From: Bacillota bacterium
GTDB taxonomy: Bacteria > Bacillota > Bacilli > Alicyclobacillales > SLC66
Direction: 5' to 3'
DNA length: 18,263 bases
NCBI GenBank assembly: GCA_021821185.1
Contig: JAKACU010000038.1
Coordinates: forward strand, 1-18,263
How positions within the stretch are numbered: the first letter of the stretch is position 1; every line of letters begins with the position of its first letter. Below are positions 2,854 through 18,263 of the stretch, piece after piece. Position numbers and translations under genes: made by a program. A model generated the notes under the pieces. The model was not told the origin of the DNA. It worked only from the letters and a program-made list of their open reading frames with translations, and ran no database searches.

Positions 2854-4233
2854 TTAAAGTGCCGGCAAAACAGTTACTGGATGTGTCACCTGACCTCGTA
2901 CCTCTAAGGCATCCATTTTTGTTTGTCGCGGCGCTTTCTCCTGTGTCACAGACTGCGTCATCGCATCTTCATACGTTAAGCCAAAAGCCCTTGCAAGAAT
3001 AGGCAATAACAAAGCGCTGTCCTGTTCAATCGCCACTTGTTTTGTCACAAGAATAGGATCGCGCAGTAATTGATGAACGACACTAGCCATATGTTTTTGA
3101 ATGATTTTCTTTTGCTTATCATCCAGATCAGGCATTTTATGAAATAAACTGTAGAGCACAGACTCTTGTACTTCAGTCGCTTTCTGTTGCAAAGAGGCAA
3201 TTAGTCGCACACCATTTTGTGAGGATAACCACGTTTCAAAAGCAGCTACTTGCTCTTCGATCATCCCATTTACATGACTTGCTTCCTGCTGCCTTGTCGC
3301 CAAACCCGAAGTTACGACAGTCTGCAGATCATCAATATCATAAACATAAACATTGTCGAGATGCGATAAAGATGGATCTACATTGCGCGGCACGGCGATA
3401 TCGATGAAAAATAACGGACGTGCTTTGCGTAGTGCCATGCGTTTTGCCACTGTGCTCGGCGTAATCAGATAAGATGCCCCGCCCGATGATGTAATCACGA
3501 TATCAGCGATCAAAAGCGCCTCTTCTAACTTGTCCATCGGCAAAGATACACCGCCCACTTGCTCTGCCATATCCTTCGCCCTAGCAAACGTGCGATTGAC
3601 GACAAACAATTGCTTGACACCTTGACTTTGCAGGTATTTCACGGTAAGATCAGCCATTTTCCCAGCGCCAAGTACCAAAACTGATTGTTCGTGAAGAGAA
3701 TCAAACACTTTTTTCGCTAAAGATACCGCCGCATAACTTACAGACACGGCACTTTGGCCAATCCCTGTCTCGGTTTGTACTCGTTTGCCAAACGTTATTG
3801 CATCGCGAAATAATTGATTAAATACATGCCCGGTCGCTTTTTTTGCTTGCGCAAATAAAAAGGCATCGCGCACTTGACCCAAGATTTGCGTTTCACCCAG
3901 CACCATGGAATCAAGGCCTGTAACCACACGGTGCAAATGAAAGACGACTTGTAAGCCCGTGTACACATAAATATGCGCGCGAAAATCCTGCGGTGAGACA
4001 TGTGAAATCGAAGCAAAAAAACTTTCAAGATCTTTTCGTGCGGTATCGATCATATCGGCAATGACATAGACTTCCGTGCGATTACATGTCGAAACAAGCA
4101 CCGCTTCTTCGATGCCAGTTGTTTCCTTTAAGCGTGTAAGAGCTTGCTCCAGTTCATCTTCCGGCACAGTAAAGTGCTCTCGAACTTCAACAGGCGCCGA
4201 ACGATAATTAAGTCCCACGAGTACAATATTCAT
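2854..4233 (-). CDS. hemA: Glutamyl-tRNA reductase HemA
   Basis: Reduces glutamyl-tRNA(Glu) with NADPH to glutamate-1-semialdehyde, the first committed step of C5-pathway tetrapyrrole synthesis. I chose the ATG at 4233-4231, eight codons inside the longest frame. It follows the strong ribosome binding site CAGGAGTG by 6 bases and gives the canonical opening MNIVLVGLNYRSAPVEVRE. The protein is 459 residues. Cys50 in VSTCNRTEVY is the catalytic thiol, GLDSMVLGETQILGQV around 108-123 is the conserved substrate-binding stretch, and VLVLGAGKMA near 185 is the NADPH-binding loop. The C-terminal helical dimerisation domain is complete. It is the first gene of the hem operon, preceded by an extended -10 promoter. 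I saw no PerR box, although B. subtilis hemA is PerR-regulated. Confidence 0.97.
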   Translation of the reverse strand: MNIVLVGLNYRSAPVEVREHFTVPEDELEQALTRLKETTGIEEAVLVSTCNRTEVYVIADMIDTARKDLESFFASISHVSPQDFRAHIYVYTGLQVVFHLHRVVTGLDSMVLGETQILGQVRDAFLFAQAKKATGHVFNQLFRDAITFGKRVQTETGIGQSAVSVSYAAVSLAKKVFDSLHEQSVLVLGAGKMADLTVKYLQSQGVKQLFVVNRTFARAKDMAEQVGGVSLPMDKLEEALLIADIVITSSGGASYLITPSTVAKRMALRKARPLFFIDIAVPRNVDPSLSHLDNVYVYDIDDLQTVVTSGLATRQQEASHVNGMIEEQVAAFETWLSSQNGVRLIASLQQKATEVQESVLYSLFHKMPDLDDKQKKIIQKHMASVVHQLLRDPILVTKQVAIEQDSALLLPILARAFGLTYEDAMTQSVTQEKAPRQTKMDALEVRGQVTHPVTVLPAL

Positions 4234-4268
4234 AGCTTTCACTCCTGAAAGACACACTTCATGGACGT

Positions 4269-4277
4269 ATTATACCA
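4269..4277 (-). promoter_or_regulatory. Extended -10 promoter of the hemA operon
   Basis: The minus strand reads TGGTATAAT, a perfect TATAAT preceded by the TGn extension. A -35 is weak (only AT-rich TTCAAT-like sequence about 20 bases upstream), which the extended -10 would compensate. The predicted start near 4262 leaves a leader of about 30 bases before the hemA ATG. Confidence 0.7.
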
Positions 4278-4426
4278 TTGGATAAGCAGATAAAATTGAA
4301 GGGTCTGTGACAGGTTGATTTTAACAGCCACTTGAACCTTGCTAATTGTGCCATAGAATCCCCAAAATTGTCATGGTCATGCAGTAACTACGCTTATGGT
4401 ACTCGTAAAATGTTACATCGAGCTTC

Positions 4427-12252: not shown

Positions 12253-13545
12253 TTAAGCTTGAACGCTATGCTGGACAAGAAATTCCACGGCTTTGCGTGA
12301 TAGAATGCCATCTTTAATCGATGCAAGTCCTGAATCATTGTTGCTTAGAAGTTCCTTTGCATCTGCAAATTCAAGGCGTGCTGCATCAGCGATTTTTTGT
12401 ACCTCAAGGTCAACTTCTTCATCGCTAATTTGAAAATCCTCTGCTTTAGCAATCGCTTCAAGAACTAAGGACGTGCGAACTCGACGTTCTGCATCTTCAC
12501 GAAACTGAGCCCTAAGTTCTTCCACCGTTGTGCCAGTGAACTCTTGGTAAGCATCCAAAGGAATACCTTGTTGCTCCAAGCGGGCACTAAAATCACGCAC
12601 TTGACTGTCGATTTCACTTTCGATCATGACAGCAGGCAGATCGATCGTCGCACCATCAACGACTTTTTCGATCACTGCGTCTTGCACATAATGCTCATGT
12701 TCATGTTCTGCGCGGTGTTCGAGTTCTTTGACAACACTTGCTTTATATTCTTCGATCGTATCGAATTCGCTGACATCGCGAGCGAAGTCATCATCAAGTT
12801 CCGGCAACACGCGACGTTTCACGTCATGCACATGCACTTGAAAGTGAGCTTCTTGGTTTGCTAAAGACTTCACATGGTAATCTTCCGGGAACGTGATCAC
12901 AATCTCCCGATCTTCACCAGCTGAGATACCGACAAGTTGATCTTCAAATCCAGGCACGAACGTTCCTGATCCAAGCTCAATCTGGTAGTTCTCGGCTTCA
13001 CCGCCTTCAAAAGGTTGTCCATCCACAAAGCCTTTAAAATCCATAACAAGAATGTCTTTGAGTTCTGCGGTTGAATCATCAACAACTTGCAATTCAGCAT
13101 GACCATTGCGGATACGGTCAAATTCGGCTGCTACATCCTCTTCGGTTACCTCAAAAGATTTGTCCTCATATGTAACGCCACGATAATCACCCAAAACAAC
13201 TTCCGGTCTTACCGTCACTGTGGCTTTAAAAACTAACGGTTTGCCCGCTTCCATTTGCACCACATCGATACTGGGACGATCGATAGGTTCAAGCATCGCT
13301 TCAAGTACAGCTGCCGAATAGGCTTCAGGAAGCAAGATATCCAAAGCATCTTGATATAACGATTCAATGCCAAAACGAGCTTCAAAAATCCGACGCGGTA
13401 CTTTACCTTTTCTAAAACCAGGAACATTGACTTGATTGACTACTTTTTTAAACGCACGATCAATCGCGCGATCGACTTGTTCAGAGGCAACCTCAACGTC
13501 TAAAATACCCACATTGGCTTCGGTTTTTTCCCATTTCACGCTCAT
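12253..13545 (-). CDS. tig: Trigger factor, ribosome-associated chaperone and prolyl isomerase
   Basis: Binds the 50S exit site and shields nascent chains. The N-terminal ribosome-binding domain carries the signature GFRKGKVPR (43-51), followed by an FKBP-type isomerase domain (around 150-240) and a helical C-terminal chaperone domain. I chose ATG 13545-13543, giving 430 residues, the family length. The longest frame begins 20 codons upstream but those codons overlap the 3' half of a tRNA gene (RGFESLLGRH is the usual false translation of a tRNA). GGAGG lies 10 bases before the chosen ATG. The gene starts 25 bases after the tRNA-Arg 3' end and is probably transcribed from the tRNA promoter. 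Confidence 0.97.
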   Translation of the reverse strand: MSVKWEKTEANVGILDVEVASEQVDRAIDRAFKKVVNQVNVPGFRKGKVPRRIFEARFGIESLYQDALDILLPEAYSAAVLEAMLEPIDRPSIDVVQMEAGKPLVFKATVTVRPEVVLGDYRGVTYEDKSFEVTEEDVAAEFDRIRNGHAELQVVDDSTAELKDILVMDFKGFVDGQPFEGGEAENYQIELGSGTFVPGFEDQLVGISAGEDREIVITFPEDYHVKSLANQEAHFQVHVHDVKRRVLPELDDDFARDVSEFDTIEEYKASVVKELEHRAEHEHEHYVQDAVIEKVVDGATIDLPAVMIESEIDSQVRDFSARLEQQGIPLDAYQEFTGTTVEELRAQFREDAERRVRTSLVLEAIAKAEDFQISDEEVDLEVQKIADAARLEFADAKELLSNNDSGLASIKDGILSRKAVEFLVQHSVQA

Positions 13546-16527: not shown

Positions 16528-17403
16528 ATGACAGAGCTTTCCTCAACAAACATTTTGCACGGTCGCATTTTAATTTCTTGCCCTGATCAGCCAGGTATCG
16601 TGGCGAAGGTGTCAAAAATACTCTACGAACAAGGGGCTAATATCACCGAATCTGCACAACACACGACAAACCCCGTTGACGGAACATTTTTCATGCGTAT
16701 CGCCTTCGATACGGACCGAAATAATGAAGCATTATCACAGATGGAAGCAGCTTTATCTCCCGTAGCGAATGAATTTTCGATGAAGTTTCATATATCTATG
16801 GCCGAACAGAGGAAAAAAATGGCCATTTTTGTATCGAAAGAGGAACATTGCTTACTTGAACTTTTGTGGCAACACCAAACAGGCGCCATAGCAGCAGACA
16901 TTGCCATGGTGATTAGTAATCATCCTGATCATGGTGATATCGTGCGTTCCATGGGTTATCCATTTTATCGCATCCCTGTCGATAAGCACAATAAGCAAAT
17001 TGCAGAACAGCAACAACTTGAACTTATCCAAGGACAAGTTGATTTTATTGTTCTTGCTCGCTACATGCAAATTTTGTCACCCTATCTTGTTGATGCTTTT
17101 GAAAATCGCATCATCAACATTCACCATTCCTTTTTACCTGCTTTCGTCGGTGCACGTCCTTATGAGAGAGCCTATGAACGCGGCGTAAAAATCATCGGTG
17201 CGACAGCCCATTATGTAACGGCGGAGCTTGATGCCGGACCAATCATCGAACAAGACGTGCAAAGAATTCATCATGGTTACTCTGTTCATGACATGAAAGC
17301 GATGGGGCGATTGATTGAACGCACCGTGTTGGCACGAGCAGTGACTTTTCATGTTGAGGATAGAATCCTCATTCACAAAAATAAAACAATTGTCTTTAGC
17401 TAA
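16528..17403 (+). CDS. purU: Formyltetrahydrofolate deformylase
   Basis: Hydrolyses 10-formyl-THF to THF and formate, balancing the one-carbon pool and supplying formate. The 291-residue protein has an N-terminal ACT regulatory domain (about 12-88, starting RILISCPDQPGIVAKVS) and a C-terminal formyltransferase-like domain (about 96-278). Catalytic-region motifs are MVISNHPDH (127-135), INIHHSFLPAF (196-206) and TAELDAGPIIEQ (231-242) with Asp235, the Asn/His/Asp set expected for this fold. The ACT domain distinguishes it from PurN and Fmt. ATG follows TAGGAGTG by about 10 bases. It stands alone on the plus strand, and I found no convincing terminator after it. Confidence 0.96.
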   Translation: MTELSSTNILHGRILISCPDQPGIVAKVSKILYEQGANITESAQHTTNPVDGTFFMRIAFDTDRNNEALSQMEAALSPVANEFSMKFHISMAEQRKKMAIFVSKEEHCLLELLWQHQTGAIAADIAMVISNHPDHGDIVRSMGYPFYRIPVDKHNKQIAEQQQLELIQGQVDFIVLARYMQILSPYLVDAFENRIINIHHSFLPAFVGARPYERAYERGVKIIGATAHYVTAELDAGPIIEQDVQRIHHGYSVHDMKAMGRLIERTVLARAVTFHVEDRILIHKNKTIVFS

Positions 17404-17545
17404 CATCTAAGCGAATCACCGGACGTTGTCCAATTGTGAATAGCTTTCTCTCTCATAAAATGGCAGACTCATTGCTTAACCCAAACAATCTACACAAGCA
17501 TGAGCTTTATCATGGGTAATTCATGTACCAAGCTGCTAGTTTGAC
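17404..17545. other. Intergenic region after purU with no recognised gene
   Basis: Contains only short weak inverted repeats (GGAC-GTT-GTCC near 17421, CATGA...TCATG near 17501) without T-runs. No coding signal or RNA gene was recognised here. Confidence 0.6.
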
Positions 17546-17573
17546 AAAAAAATAAGCGCCTCCGAAGGTACGC
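17546..17573 (-). terminator. Probable terminator of the small-peptide mRNA
   Basis: On the minus strand, GCG..CCT-TCGG-AGG-CGC forms a six-pair stem with a 2-base bulge, followed by TTATTTTTTT. The stem is modest but the T-run is strong. It would end a minus-strand transcript running from about 17826, giving an mRNA of roughly 280 bases. Confidence 0.55.
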
Positions 17574-17577
17574 ATGA

Positions 17578-17606
17578 TTGTCGTCACATTTGGTGCATGT
17601 TATAAT
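17578..17606 (+). promoter_or_regulatory. Strong promoter of the convergent small RNA
   Basis: TTGTCG (17578-17583), exactly 17 bases, TATAAT (17601-17606), with TGT directly before TATAAT as an extended -10. One of the best promoter matches in the window, yet it heads no open reading frame. Confidence 0.78.
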
Positions 17607-17612
17607 AACGGT

Positions 17613-17684
17613 GAATAGAGGGCCAAAACCTCGCTTGTCGGGATTTAACGCCGCTACTAGCCGCAAACTAGTAGCGGCATTTTC
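17613..17684 (+). ncRNA. Predicted antisense RNA (about 72 nt), putative type I antitoxin
   Basis: Begins about 7 bases after the TATAAT at 17601-17606 and ends at the intrinsic terminator at 17650-17683. It contains a GAGG/CCTC hairpin near the 5' end and then the terminator stem. No credible open frame is present. Its whole length is complementary to the minus-strand transcript downstream of the 28-codon peptide gene, stopping 2 bases short of the peptide stop codon. This is the layout of RatA (txpA) and SR4 (bsrG) in B. subtilis. Start and end are inferred from promoter and terminator only. Confidence 0.62.
17650..17683 (+). terminator. Intrinsic terminator of the convergent small RNA
   Basis: Perfect 11-bp stem GCCGCTACTAG/CTAGTAGCGGC with a 7-base loop, then ATTTT on the plus strand. 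The minus-strand side is followed by GTTAAATCC, so it should not stop the opposing transcript efficiently. Confidence 0.82.
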
Positions 17685-17685
17685 G

Positions 17686-17772
17686 TTACCGCAAAGCTAG
17701 CTTAATGATTGCTACGACTAACAGCAAGAGCGTTAAAATCGCCATGGCAAGACGATAATCGTGTGAATTCAC
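17686..17772 (-). CDS. Small hydrophobic membrane peptide, putative type I toxin (holin-like toxin type)
   Basis: A 28-codon frame starting at GTG (17772-17770), with AAAGGGGG (17788-17781) exactly 8 bases upstream, the strongest ribosome binding site in this part of the window. The peptide starts MNSHDYRLAM and ends VVAIIKLALR: a short polar head, one membrane segment at about residues 8-23 made of A/I/L/V, and a basic tail (K24, R28). Size and pattern resemble the Bacillota holin-like/TxpA-BsrG class of type I toxins, which insert into the membrane; I have not matched it to a named family. A convergent RNA unit overlaps its 3' untranslated region. A shorter start at ATG codon 10 would remove the polar head and lacks a ribosome binding site. 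Function is inferred. Confidence 0.65.
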   Translation of the reverse strand: MNSHDYRLAMAILTLLLLVVAIIKLALR

Positions 17773-17832
17773 AGCTCTCGCCCCCTTTGATGTTATCTCT
17801 GGCAAGCGAGTTTTCTATCCACCGTCTCGCTT

Positions 17833-17841
17833 ATTCTACCA
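17833..17841 (-). promoter_or_regulatory. Candidate extended -10 promoter of the small peptide
   Basis: Minus strand TGGTAGAAT, a 5-of-6 -10 with TGn extension, but no -35 at 16-18 bases. The predicted start near 17826 gives a leader of about 53 bases. It lies only 8 bases past the transposase stop codon, so insertion-element sequence may shape it. Confidence 0.4.
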
Positions 17842-17849
17842 AATCCCAC

Positions 17850-18263
17850 CTACCTTCGCGAGATTTCAACCGTCCAAAAAGGCCCCAGAAGGGGCCTCTG
17901 TACTAGTTCTCCATTGGAGGTGCGCACAGCGATATGGAATTGGTTCCTCGTCCAGTATCGGCCAGAATACACGAGCTTCCCCGCAATTTTGACCAGCTTG
18001 GTTCGCAGCGTTTCCATCCGGCTTGCTTTCATCTTCTGTGGCAGACACAATCGGCGAAACCAGTTGTTGAAATCATTGGCCAGCATGGCAATTTGCAGTT
18101 TTACGGCGTTCGACTCAAAGTCTGTACTGCTCATCGTATCGCAAGCAAATCCATTTTTAGCTTCCTTGATGAAATTCTCCATGTGGCCACGTTGGCAATA
18201 TAAATGAATGACGTTCTTGGGTTGCAGCGTCATATTGGTTACGATAAAAGTGAACTGAAACAA
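17850..18263 (-). CDS. IS1380-family transposase, C-terminal part (open at the window edge)
   Basis: 137 codons of a DDE transposase; the frame is open to the right edge, so the N-terminus and the first two catalytic aspartates are outside. The segment HLYCQRGHMENFIKEAKNGF carries the YREK signature of the IS4/IS1380 superfamily with exact spacing (Tyr22, Arg25, Glu29, Lys36, counted from the first visible codon); Glu29 is the third catalytic acid. NDFNNWFRRLCLP and the following RTKLVKIAGKLVYSGRYW match the C-terminal region of IS1380-type transposases. The last 13 or so codons cross a strong terminator hairpin at 17876-17896, so the mRNA may end before the stop codon. Whether the element is intact cannot be judged here. 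Confidence 0.88.
   Translation of the reverse strand: MFQFTFIVTNMTLQPKNVIHLYCQRGHMENFIKEAKNGFACDTMSSTDFESNAVKLQIAMLANDFNNWFRRLCLPQKMKASRMETLRTKLVKIAGKLVYSGRYWTRNQFHIAVRTSNGELVQRPLLGPFWTVEISRR
17850..18263 (-). mobile_element. IS1380-family insertion sequence, 3' end
   Basis: Defined by the transposase. The terminal inverted repeat and target duplication could not be located because the other end lies outside the window; the true boundary may lie between about 17815 and 17850, close to the small-peptide promoter. Confidence 0.6.
17876..17896 (-). terminator. Intrinsic terminator inside the transposase 3' end
   Basis: Minus strand GGCCCC-TTCT-GGGGCC followed by TTTTT, a textbook terminator. 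It ends 24 bases before the transposase TAG codon and would shield the downstream small-peptide gene from transposase read-through. Confidence 0.85.

What the first reader, a model, noticed from the sequence alone, without database searches (positions are those of the whole stretch)
17546..17841. Unannotated candidate type I toxin-antitoxin module between purU and the insertion element
Seen: a 28-codon, single-membrane-segment, basic-tailed peptide with an 8-base-spaced AAAGGGGG ribosome binding site on the minus strand; a convergent plus-strand unit with TTGTCG-N17-TATAAT (extended -10) and a perfect 11-bp-stem terminator lying wholly in the peptide mRNA's 3' untranslated region; and a T-rich terminator further on for the peptide mRNA. 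Known: B. subtilis txpA/ratA and bsrG/SR4 share this layout of a small hydrophobic toxin with an antisense RNA overlapping the mRNA 3' part. Inferred: this pair is a type I module, and I do not recognise it as a described family.
Basis: partly seen in the sequence, partly recalled or inferred. Interest (0 to 1): 0.85.

Follow-up and report, generated by a model that had tools for sequence, protein, structure and literature searches.

The report
New leader-copying type I toxin-antitoxin family
Between two broken insertion-sequence pieces lies a compact gene pair that likely makes a 28-residue membrane toxin and a convergent antisense RNA predicted to silence it; relatives in two bacterial orders share the layout, and the antisense gene carries a copy of the toxin gene's own leader.

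Summary
A type I toxin-antitoxin module is the best reading. No Pfam or NCBIfam model matches the peptide, and a word-based search of 5.8 billion predicted proteins gave no match. Iterated genome searches found relatives in 4 of 59 genomes of one order and 2 of 14 of another. In the six loci with an intact 3' side (window included) the antisense gene begins with a copy of the toxin leader, different in each locus but matched within it (best of 720 permutations). A covariance model built without the window finds the window locus end to end (E 7e-4). The same leader copy occurs in most tested Hol_Tox loci of that order and in B. subtilis bsrG/SR4, where published probing shows SR4, bound at the toxin mRNA's 3' end, closing the ribosome site further. 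The module is therefore read as a compact relative, in mechanism, of bsrG/SR4. Its peptide is not detectably similar to BsrG and misses the Hol_Tox cut-off. Transcription and toxicity are untested.

The parts
17856..17861 (-). possible toxin -35 (TCGCGA), 17 nt from the -10
   Evidence: by eye; same spacing and similar surrounding bases in G049; not listed by the scan
17833..17838 (-). likely toxin -10 (TAGAAT)
   Evidence: TAGAAT, TAGCAT or TATAAT at the same place in the seven loci with an intact leader (by eye)
17773..17828 (-). toxin mRNA leader (predicted transcript start about 17828-17826)
   Evidence: transcript start inferred from the -10
17815..17825 (-). leader tag ACGGTGGATAG, copied in the antisense gene
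   Evidence: alignment
17801..17810 (-). anti-SD arm CTCGCTTGCC; predicted to pair with SD GGGGGCGAG or with the 3' UTR
   Evidence: folds
17781..17788 (-). ribosome binding site AAAGGGGG, 8 nt before GTG
17686..17772 (-). 28-codon ORF (GTG start), predicted single-membrane-segment toxin
   Evidence: HMM of 5 relatives ranks this frame first of 693; 0 of 4000 shuffles reach its score
17578..17606 (+). antisense promoter TTGTCG-N17-TATAAT, extended -10
   Evidence: scan also lists an antisense promoter at this place in G002, G217, G108 but not in G049, G052
17609..17685 (+). predicted antisense (antitoxin) RNA, about 72-77 nt, wholly complementary to the toxin mRNA 3' UTR
   Evidence: ends inferred
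17608..17637 (+). copy of the toxin leader (ACGGTGAATAG...AAAACCTCGCTTG) at the antisense start
17650..17686 (+). antisense terminator: 11-pair perfect stem plus T-rich tail
   Evidence: matching stem in relatives with two-sided changes; scan calls it a terminator also in G052 and G108, not in G002, G049, G217 (weak T tails)
17546..17573 (-). likely toxin mRNA terminator (imperfect stem, T-run)
   Evidence: sequence by eye; not listed by the scan
17877..17900 (-). terminator-like site upstream of the toxin promoter; would insulate it from the transposase fragment
17448..17549 (+). decayed IS1380 transposase fragment (residues 258-291, in-frame stop)
17949..18263 (-). IS1380 transposase fragment (residues 307-411, 85% identical to the SO9 protein), runs off the window
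16528..17403 (+). purU-like gene (name from the finding; not checked against a family library)

Best explanation
The locus is most likely a chromosomal type I toxin-antitoxin module: a GTG-started 28-codon ORF for a predicted membrane toxin, and a convergent, roughly 75-nt antisense RNA, predicted to act as antitoxin, whose gene starts with a copy of the toxin leader. Shown: the anatomy, its relatives, and leader and antisense sequences that change together from locus to locus. Predicted by folding: the toxin mRNA leader pairs with its own 3' UTR (a 5'-3' clamp). Inferred, by analogy with bsrG/SR4: the antisense RNA pairs with the 3' UTR and takes the place of the leader. The freed anti-SD arm then closes over the SD, and RNase III cuts the duplex, so no toxin is made. 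If antisense RNA is lost or short-lived (loss of the element, stress), toxin would be translated and act at the membrane.
For: Window peptide is first of 693 frames against an HMM of five relatives; 0 of 4000 shuffles reach its score. Leader/antisense match in 6 of 6 loci with an intact 3' side: shuffles reaching it 6, 1, 0, 0, 0, 0 of 300; true pairing best of 720 permutations in three measures; none of 35 antisense stretches scores higher than the own one for any of the six leaders. RNAalifold on a sequence-only alignment recovers clamp, SD hairpin and antisense stem: 15 of 32 pairs changed on both sides against a shuffled mean of 7.1, 0/500; slid controls 0-7. Covariance model without the window hits 17829-17602(-) over its full length, E 7e-4, next 0.076. 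No shared neighbour gene seen in 7 loci. bsrG/SR4 has the same leader copy; its folds give the clamp and a longer SD stem when the 3' UTR is blocked (5 to 9 pairs). Published probing reports SR4 pairing with the 3' part of helix P1 and the SD stem growing from 4 to 8 bp (PMC7430163, PMC6562991, passages).
Against: No transcript or toxicity data. Relatives were found by iterating from the window peptide, so peptide similarity is partly circular; the first link was only E 0.26. The window has the weakest leader match of the six (6/300; 7/500). RNAalifold's own covariation term is near zero (+0.39 on six loci, -0.32 on five), and the counted structure came from the same alignment after I left out one 5-pair helix inside the ORF. 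SD accessibility, free to 3'-UTR-blocked, on the 5-nt core: falls in 3 of 6 (window 0.19 to 0.15, G052 0.34 to 0.00, G217 0.26 to 0.06), same in 2, rises in G108; on 8 nt: falls in 2 (window 0.02, G052 0.16), same in 2, rises in 2. So folding does not show the switch; the 8-nt measure also rises for bsrG (0.39 to 0.43). The scan lists the antisense promoter in 4 of 6 and the antisense terminator in 3 of 6, and a toxin promoter at the expected place in none. Some copies are decayed (G050 C47 and C5, G052 ORF, G002 C94).
Confidence: 0.72

Rival explanations
1. The locus is a type I module of the same origin, but in the window it is a decaying relic stranded in a broken insertion sequence, with no working toxin or antisense RNA.
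For: Flanks are transposase fragments, one with an in-frame stop; G050 copies, the G052 ORF and G002 C94 are decayed; the window has the weakest leader match and no scan-listed toxin promoter.
Against: In the window the ORF, SD, antisense promoter, antisense terminator and leader copy are intact, and the full-length covariance match persists.
Confidence: 0.15
2. The peptide is a small membrane regulator or signalling peptide, controlled by an antisense RNA but not a toxin.
For: Toxicity is inferred only from layout and hydrophobicity. In G049, G002 and G108 the next same-strand ORF looks like an exported protein by eye.
Against: Those exported-looking proteins are not alike (best non-self blastp E 0.15); distribution is sporadic with decayed extra copies; SD hairpin and convergent antisense resemble proven bsrG/SR4.
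Confidence: 0.14
3. The matched sequences are DNA-level inverted repeats (operators of a regulator, or ends of a small mobile element), not RNA pairing partners.
For: The copies sit just inside both promoters, and inverted repeats also bound small mobile elements. For the tag helix alone, further pair types do not exceed shuffles (354/500).
Against: Repeat sequence differs from locus to locus while staying matched within each; two-sided changes exceed shuffles; sequence outside the repeat is conserved between window and G049; reviews describe a probed helix P1 in bsrG whose 3' part SR4 invades (PMC7430163).
Confidence: 0.09

Closest known systems
bsrG/SR4 (B. subtilis prophage SPbeta)
   Same: Small hydrophobic toxin, SD in a hairpin, convergent antisense complementary to the mRNA 3' part, antisense gene carrying a copy of the toxin leader, predicted 5'-3' clamp (PMC7430163 passages).
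   Different: Toxin 38 residues and antitoxin 180 nt there, 28 residues and about 75 nt here; overlap there is at the 3' ends, here the antisense lies wholly inside the 3' UTR; BsrG does not match the HMM of the window's relatives (-0.8 bits).
Hol_Tox loci (PF16935) of the same order
   Same: 23 of 28 tested loci show leader/antisense similarity at 25 or fewer of 500 shuffles, 16 at 5 or fewer; C-terminal membrane half aligns in a profile comparison (94.5%; 0 of 200 column shuffles reach it).
   Different: The window peptide has no Pfam match at E up to 10; only 1 of 6 family members reaches E 0.0026.
txpA/RatA
   Same: Convergent antisense over the mRNA 3' part; RBS held in a short GC helix (PMC6562991 passages).
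   Different: 59-residue toxin; RatA reported to act by RNase III decay without a change at the SD (PMC6562991); leader copy not tested here.
hok/Sok and aapA/IsoA
   Same: 5'-3' long-distance pairing of the toxin mRNA (PMC6733600 passages).
   Different: There the clamp keeps the mRNA inert until 3' trimming; in the passages seen the antitoxin is not described as a copy of the leader. Peptides not compared here.
fst (RNA I/RNA II, pAD1)
   Same: Convergent RNAs with repeats in both genes (PMC4147584 passages).
   Different: Fst repeats are direct, so the antitoxin is complementary to the leader; here they are inverted, so it copies the leader.

Membership tests
Type I toxin-antitoxin (general) | Short hydrophobic peptide ORF with its own SD | tested here: met
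Type I toxin-antitoxin (general) | Antisense RNA gene overlapping the toxin transcript, with promoter and terminator | tested here: met
   Sequence level only, for the window. Of the six loci the scan lists the antisense promoter in 4 and the terminator in 3. Transcripts not tested.
Type I toxin-antitoxin (general) | Peptide toxic, antisense RNA neutralises it | not testable with these tools
   needs expression tests
Hol_Tox (PF16935) | Match over the curated cut-off | tested here: not met
   window: no family at E up to 10; 1 of 6 members at E 0.0026. Not filed as a member.
Hol_Tox (PF16935) | Distant homology | tested here: inconclusive
   hhalign 94.5% over 24 columns of the hydrophobic half; 0 of 200 column shuffles reach its score; BsrG itself gives -0.8 bits against the relatives' HMM
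bsrG/SR4-like regulation | Antitoxin gene copies the toxin leader, making leader-3' UTR pairing possible | tested here: met
   that this defines bsrG/SR4 is my inference
bsrG/SR4-like regulation | Antitoxin binding lengthens the SD-closing stem | tested here: inconclusive
   folds show it for bsrG and, as a leader-SD hairpin, for the window, but SD accessibility changes little or both ways
fst/RNA II | Direct repeats making the antitoxin complementary to the leader | tested here: not met
   the matched sequences found are inverted
hok/Sok, aapA/IsoA | 5'-3' clamp of the toxin mRNA | tested here: met
   prediction only: folding and two-sided changes
hok/Sok, aapA/IsoA | 3' trimming activates translation | not testable with these tools
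   needs RNA mapping

The most novel reading that the evidence does not exclude
Antitoxin as forged leader: in this new family, and across Hol_Tox loci and bsrG/SR4, the antisense RNA carries a copy of the toxin mRNA's own leader, so it can replace the real leader in the mRNA's 5'-3' clamp and thereby lock the ribosome site. The matched sequences drift together locus by locus, giving each copy a private key and keeping paralogous modules from cross-silencing.
Probability: 0.4. Interest if true: 0.72.

Novelty: new member of a known kind. Interest (0 to 1): 0.5.

Why it matters
It adds a likely toxin family that gene callers and profile libraries miss: three queries of 5.8 billion predicted proteins returned one member, unnamed. 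It also gives comparative evidence that the leader/3'-UTR switch probed in bsrG/SR4 may be a wider rule for this class. Locus-private keys would explain how one genome keeps several such modules without cross-talk, which can be tested by swapping leaders in laboratory strains.

Tried and rejected
Rejected as relatives: six of nine hits of the class search, that is all but G002, G217 and G108. L185 is a 197-residue frame; L150 lies in a 100-residue frame; L189 has an internal stop and gave no motif match; L186, L187 and L188 were dropped on frame length alone (343, 572, 571 residues) without reading. L193 (51-residue frame) and L192 (Hol_Tox-like by eye) were set aside. L214 was dropped. The remaining weak rows were not inspected one by one.

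Led nowhere: DNA search of the locus in 59 genomes found only the IS1380 piece plus weak hits that I took as chance. Plasmid and phage searches with one relative, G002 (DNA in plasmids; protein in plasmids and phages), found nothing. One exact leader pattern in viral contigs gave 0. Protein searches with window, G002 and G108 frames gave none, itself, none. The purU scan kept 80 of 580 relatives, all at 63% identity or less. First idea dropped: that the module is a passenger inside an IS1380 element; the two transposase pieces point in opposite directions. Second idea weakened: that antisense binding changes SD access; folding shows little or mixed change. Third idea corrected: that the leader copy is unique to this family; the Hol_Tox and bsrG controls show it too. 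Left out of six-locus counts: G050 C54 and C47, which lack an intact 3' side and show no leader match (16 and 16), and G050 C5. Left out of the Hol_Tox control: 2 of the 30 loci (L121, L122). In four loci used (L113, L114, L119, L120) the profile match starts inside the peptide, so their leader window is displaced.

Full report
What is there. The minus strand holds GTG-28 codons-TAA at 17772-17686 with AAAGGGGG 8 nt upstream. The plus strand holds TTGTCG-N17-TATAAT (17578-17606) and a perfect 11-pair terminator (17650-17678), wholly inside the peptide mRNA's 3' UTR. I add a possible toxin promoter TCGCGA-N17-TAGAAT (17861-17833), matching G049 at 26 of 31 bases by eye; the scan does not list it. 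By count, promoter- and terminator-like sites are not above shuffles; conservation must carry the case.

Surroundings. 17448-17549(+) matches residues 258-291 of an IS1380 transposase (Alicyclobacillus sp. SO9 plasmid) at 62% with an in-frame stop; 17949-18263(-) matches residues 307-411 at 85% and runs off the window. The module sits between two oppositely oriented relics. No whole genome is held for the window. Of the two genomes I reached through loci, G002 (the MAG of L002) has a ClpX 90% identical to the window's, so I worked in its order.

Relatives. The peptide has no Pfam or NCBIfam match at E up to 10. In the 59 genomes of G002's order 8 hits at E up to 10 came up, most inside long frames; G050:C54 (E 0.26, 43-codon frame) is 12 of 28 residues identical without gaps and has a strong SD. 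A two-row profile then found G049 (4.5e-9), G002 (1.1e-7) and two more G050 copies, with G052 weaker at 0.0125. A four-row profile over 398 genomes of the class gave 9 genomes at E up to 0.01, of which I accept G002, G217 (5.4e-8) and G108 (1.1e-4). G217 and G108 lie in a second order, of which 14 genomes are held: 2 of 14 (the same genomes twice). In the first order 4 of 59 have clear members. The RNA model also finds these four, but G049, G002 and G052 by construction; G050, not in the model, scores 2.4e-25. Because the search started from the window, I tested it back: an HMM of five relatives without the window ranks the window frame first of 693 (E 3.7e-5, next 1.8), and 0 of 4000 shuffles reach its score. 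Codon differences are 185/109/267 at positions 1/2/3 over 407 aligned codon pairs, as for coding sequence, though hydrophobic codons bias position 2.

The RNA architecture. In the six loci with an intact 3' side (window, G049, G002, G052, G217, G108) the antisense gene begins with a copy of the toxin leader: tag plus anti-SD arm. Shuffles reaching the match: 6, 1, 0, 0, 0, 0 of 300. The tags differ between loci but match within them: true pairing is the best of 720 permutations by alignment, duplex energy and longest word. One exception: the G217 leader pairs more strongly with G049's 3' UTR (-49.2) than with its own (-42.3), and scores higher against G049's antisense (24) than G049's leader does (23). 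A sequence-only alignment, folded by RNAalifold, shows the 5'-3' helix, the SD hairpin and the antisense stem, plus a 5-pair helix inside the ORF that I left out of the count. Of the 32 remaining pairs 15 have two-sided changes (shuffled mean 7.1, 0/500), and 85.5% of cells pair against 39-44% for slid versions; the structure came from the same alignment, which favours it, and RNAalifold's own covariation term is near zero (+0.39; -0.32 on five loci). The tag helix alone has two-sided changes in 5 of 13 pairs (8/500 shuffles), while its further pair types do not exceed shuffles (354/500). On the five relatives alone RNAalifold prefers the anti-SD arm paired with the 3' UTR; that helix has two-sided changes in 6 of 11 pairs (0/500; 4 when slid by +2). 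So anti-SD/SD and anti-SD/3' UTR look like competing conserved helices. A covariance model from the five relatives hits the window at 17829-17602(-), full length, E 7e-4 (next 0.076; E-values rough). G002 also holds a decayed copy with its own matched tag (E 0.024, by eye).

Promoters and terminators in relatives. The scan lists an antisense promoter at the expected place in window, G002, G217 and G108, not in G049 and G052, where I read a -10 by eye; it lists the antisense terminator in window, G052 and G108, not in G002, G049 and G217, whose T tails are weak. It lists a toxin promoter at the expected place in none of the six, and a toxin terminator only in G108 (1321-1301).

Neighbours. In seven loci the flanking ORFs differ by eye. 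In G049, G002 and G108 the next same-strand ORF looks exported, but these proteins are not alike (best non-self E 0.15).

Control that changed the reading. I asked whether the leader copy is unique. It is not: of 28 Hol_Tox loci of the same order (28 of the 30 loci), 16 have 5 or fewer of 500 shuffles at their score, 23 have 25 or fewer, 5 do not; 15 of 28 score 21 or more, against 336 of 20000 random places, mostly Paenibacillus DNA. These loci are related, so they are not independent. I then fetched part of SPbeta: bsrG/SR4 shows the same copy (3 of 500 shuffles with an 80-nt leader window, 60 nt for the others). Folding bsrG mRNA gives the clamp, and blocking the 3' UTR lengthens the SD stem from 5 to 9 pairs. 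Reviews of the published probing say SR4 pairs with the 3' part of helix P1 and lengthens the SD stem from 4 to 8 bp (PMC7430163 and PMC6562991, passages; the original paper is not held).

Mechanism. Shown: anatomy, relatives, sequences that change together. Predicted: clamp in all six loci. Inferred: antisense RNA takes the leader's place, the anti-SD arm closes the SD, RNase III cuts the duplex. Against it: predicted SD accessibility, free/blocked on 8 nt, is window 0.49/0.47, G049 0.50/0.50, G002 0.50/0.50, G052 0.54/0.38, G217 0.33/0.36, G108 0.52/0.63, bsrG 0.39/0.43; on the 5-nt core it falls in 3 of 6, stays in 2 and rises in 1. Duplex decay may matter more than the switch.

Family standing. 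It works like bsrG/SR4. It is not filed as Hol_Tox: the Pfam cut-off is not met. A distant tie is likely but unproven: hhalign 94.5% over the hydrophobic half, 0 of 200 column shuffles reach its score, yet BsrG gives only -0.8 bits against the relatives' HMM. It is not fst-like, since the repeats are inverted. Paper searches for type I systems with Alicyclobacillus, Acidibacillus or Hol-Tox terms listed no paper that, by title and abstract start, describes this family; searches with bsrG/SR4/inverted repeat and covariation terms listed six papers, of which I read passages of one, PMC6733600. Only the held open-licence library was searched.

Verdict. A conserved, likely working type I module and founder of a small, nearly unannotated family; new member of a known kind, with an architecture worth testing across the class.

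Noticed in passing
17448-17549(+) and 17949-18263(-): Two oppositely oriented IS1380 transposase fragments flank the module; the first has an in-frame stop, the second runs off the window end.
   Followed up: yes
L093-L120 (Hol_Tox loci of the same order) and L225 about 12560-12940 (bsrG/SR4): Antisense genes of most tested Hol_Tox loci and of bsrG/SR4 also carry a copy of the toxin leader.
   Followed up: partly
L223 about 915-1104 (G002:C94): Decayed second copy in G002 with its own matched tag (GGCAAGAAAGG and its complement), different from the intact G002 copy.
   Followed up: partly
L178 about 3750-4345 (G050:C54): A type II antitoxin/toxin-like pair (Phd/VapC-like by eye, names recalled) lies just upstream of the G050 peptide copy.
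   Followed up: no
16528-17403: The purU-like protein is at most 63% identical to the kept hits in genome contigs, and 60% to that of G002, whose ClpX is 90% identical; the gene may have been acquired separately.
   Followed up: no
L176 1137-1256: In G002 a gene caller starts the peptide at an upstream ATG (40 residues, P0003) that lacks a spaced SD; the GTG after GGAAAGGAGG looks the better start.
   Followed up: partly
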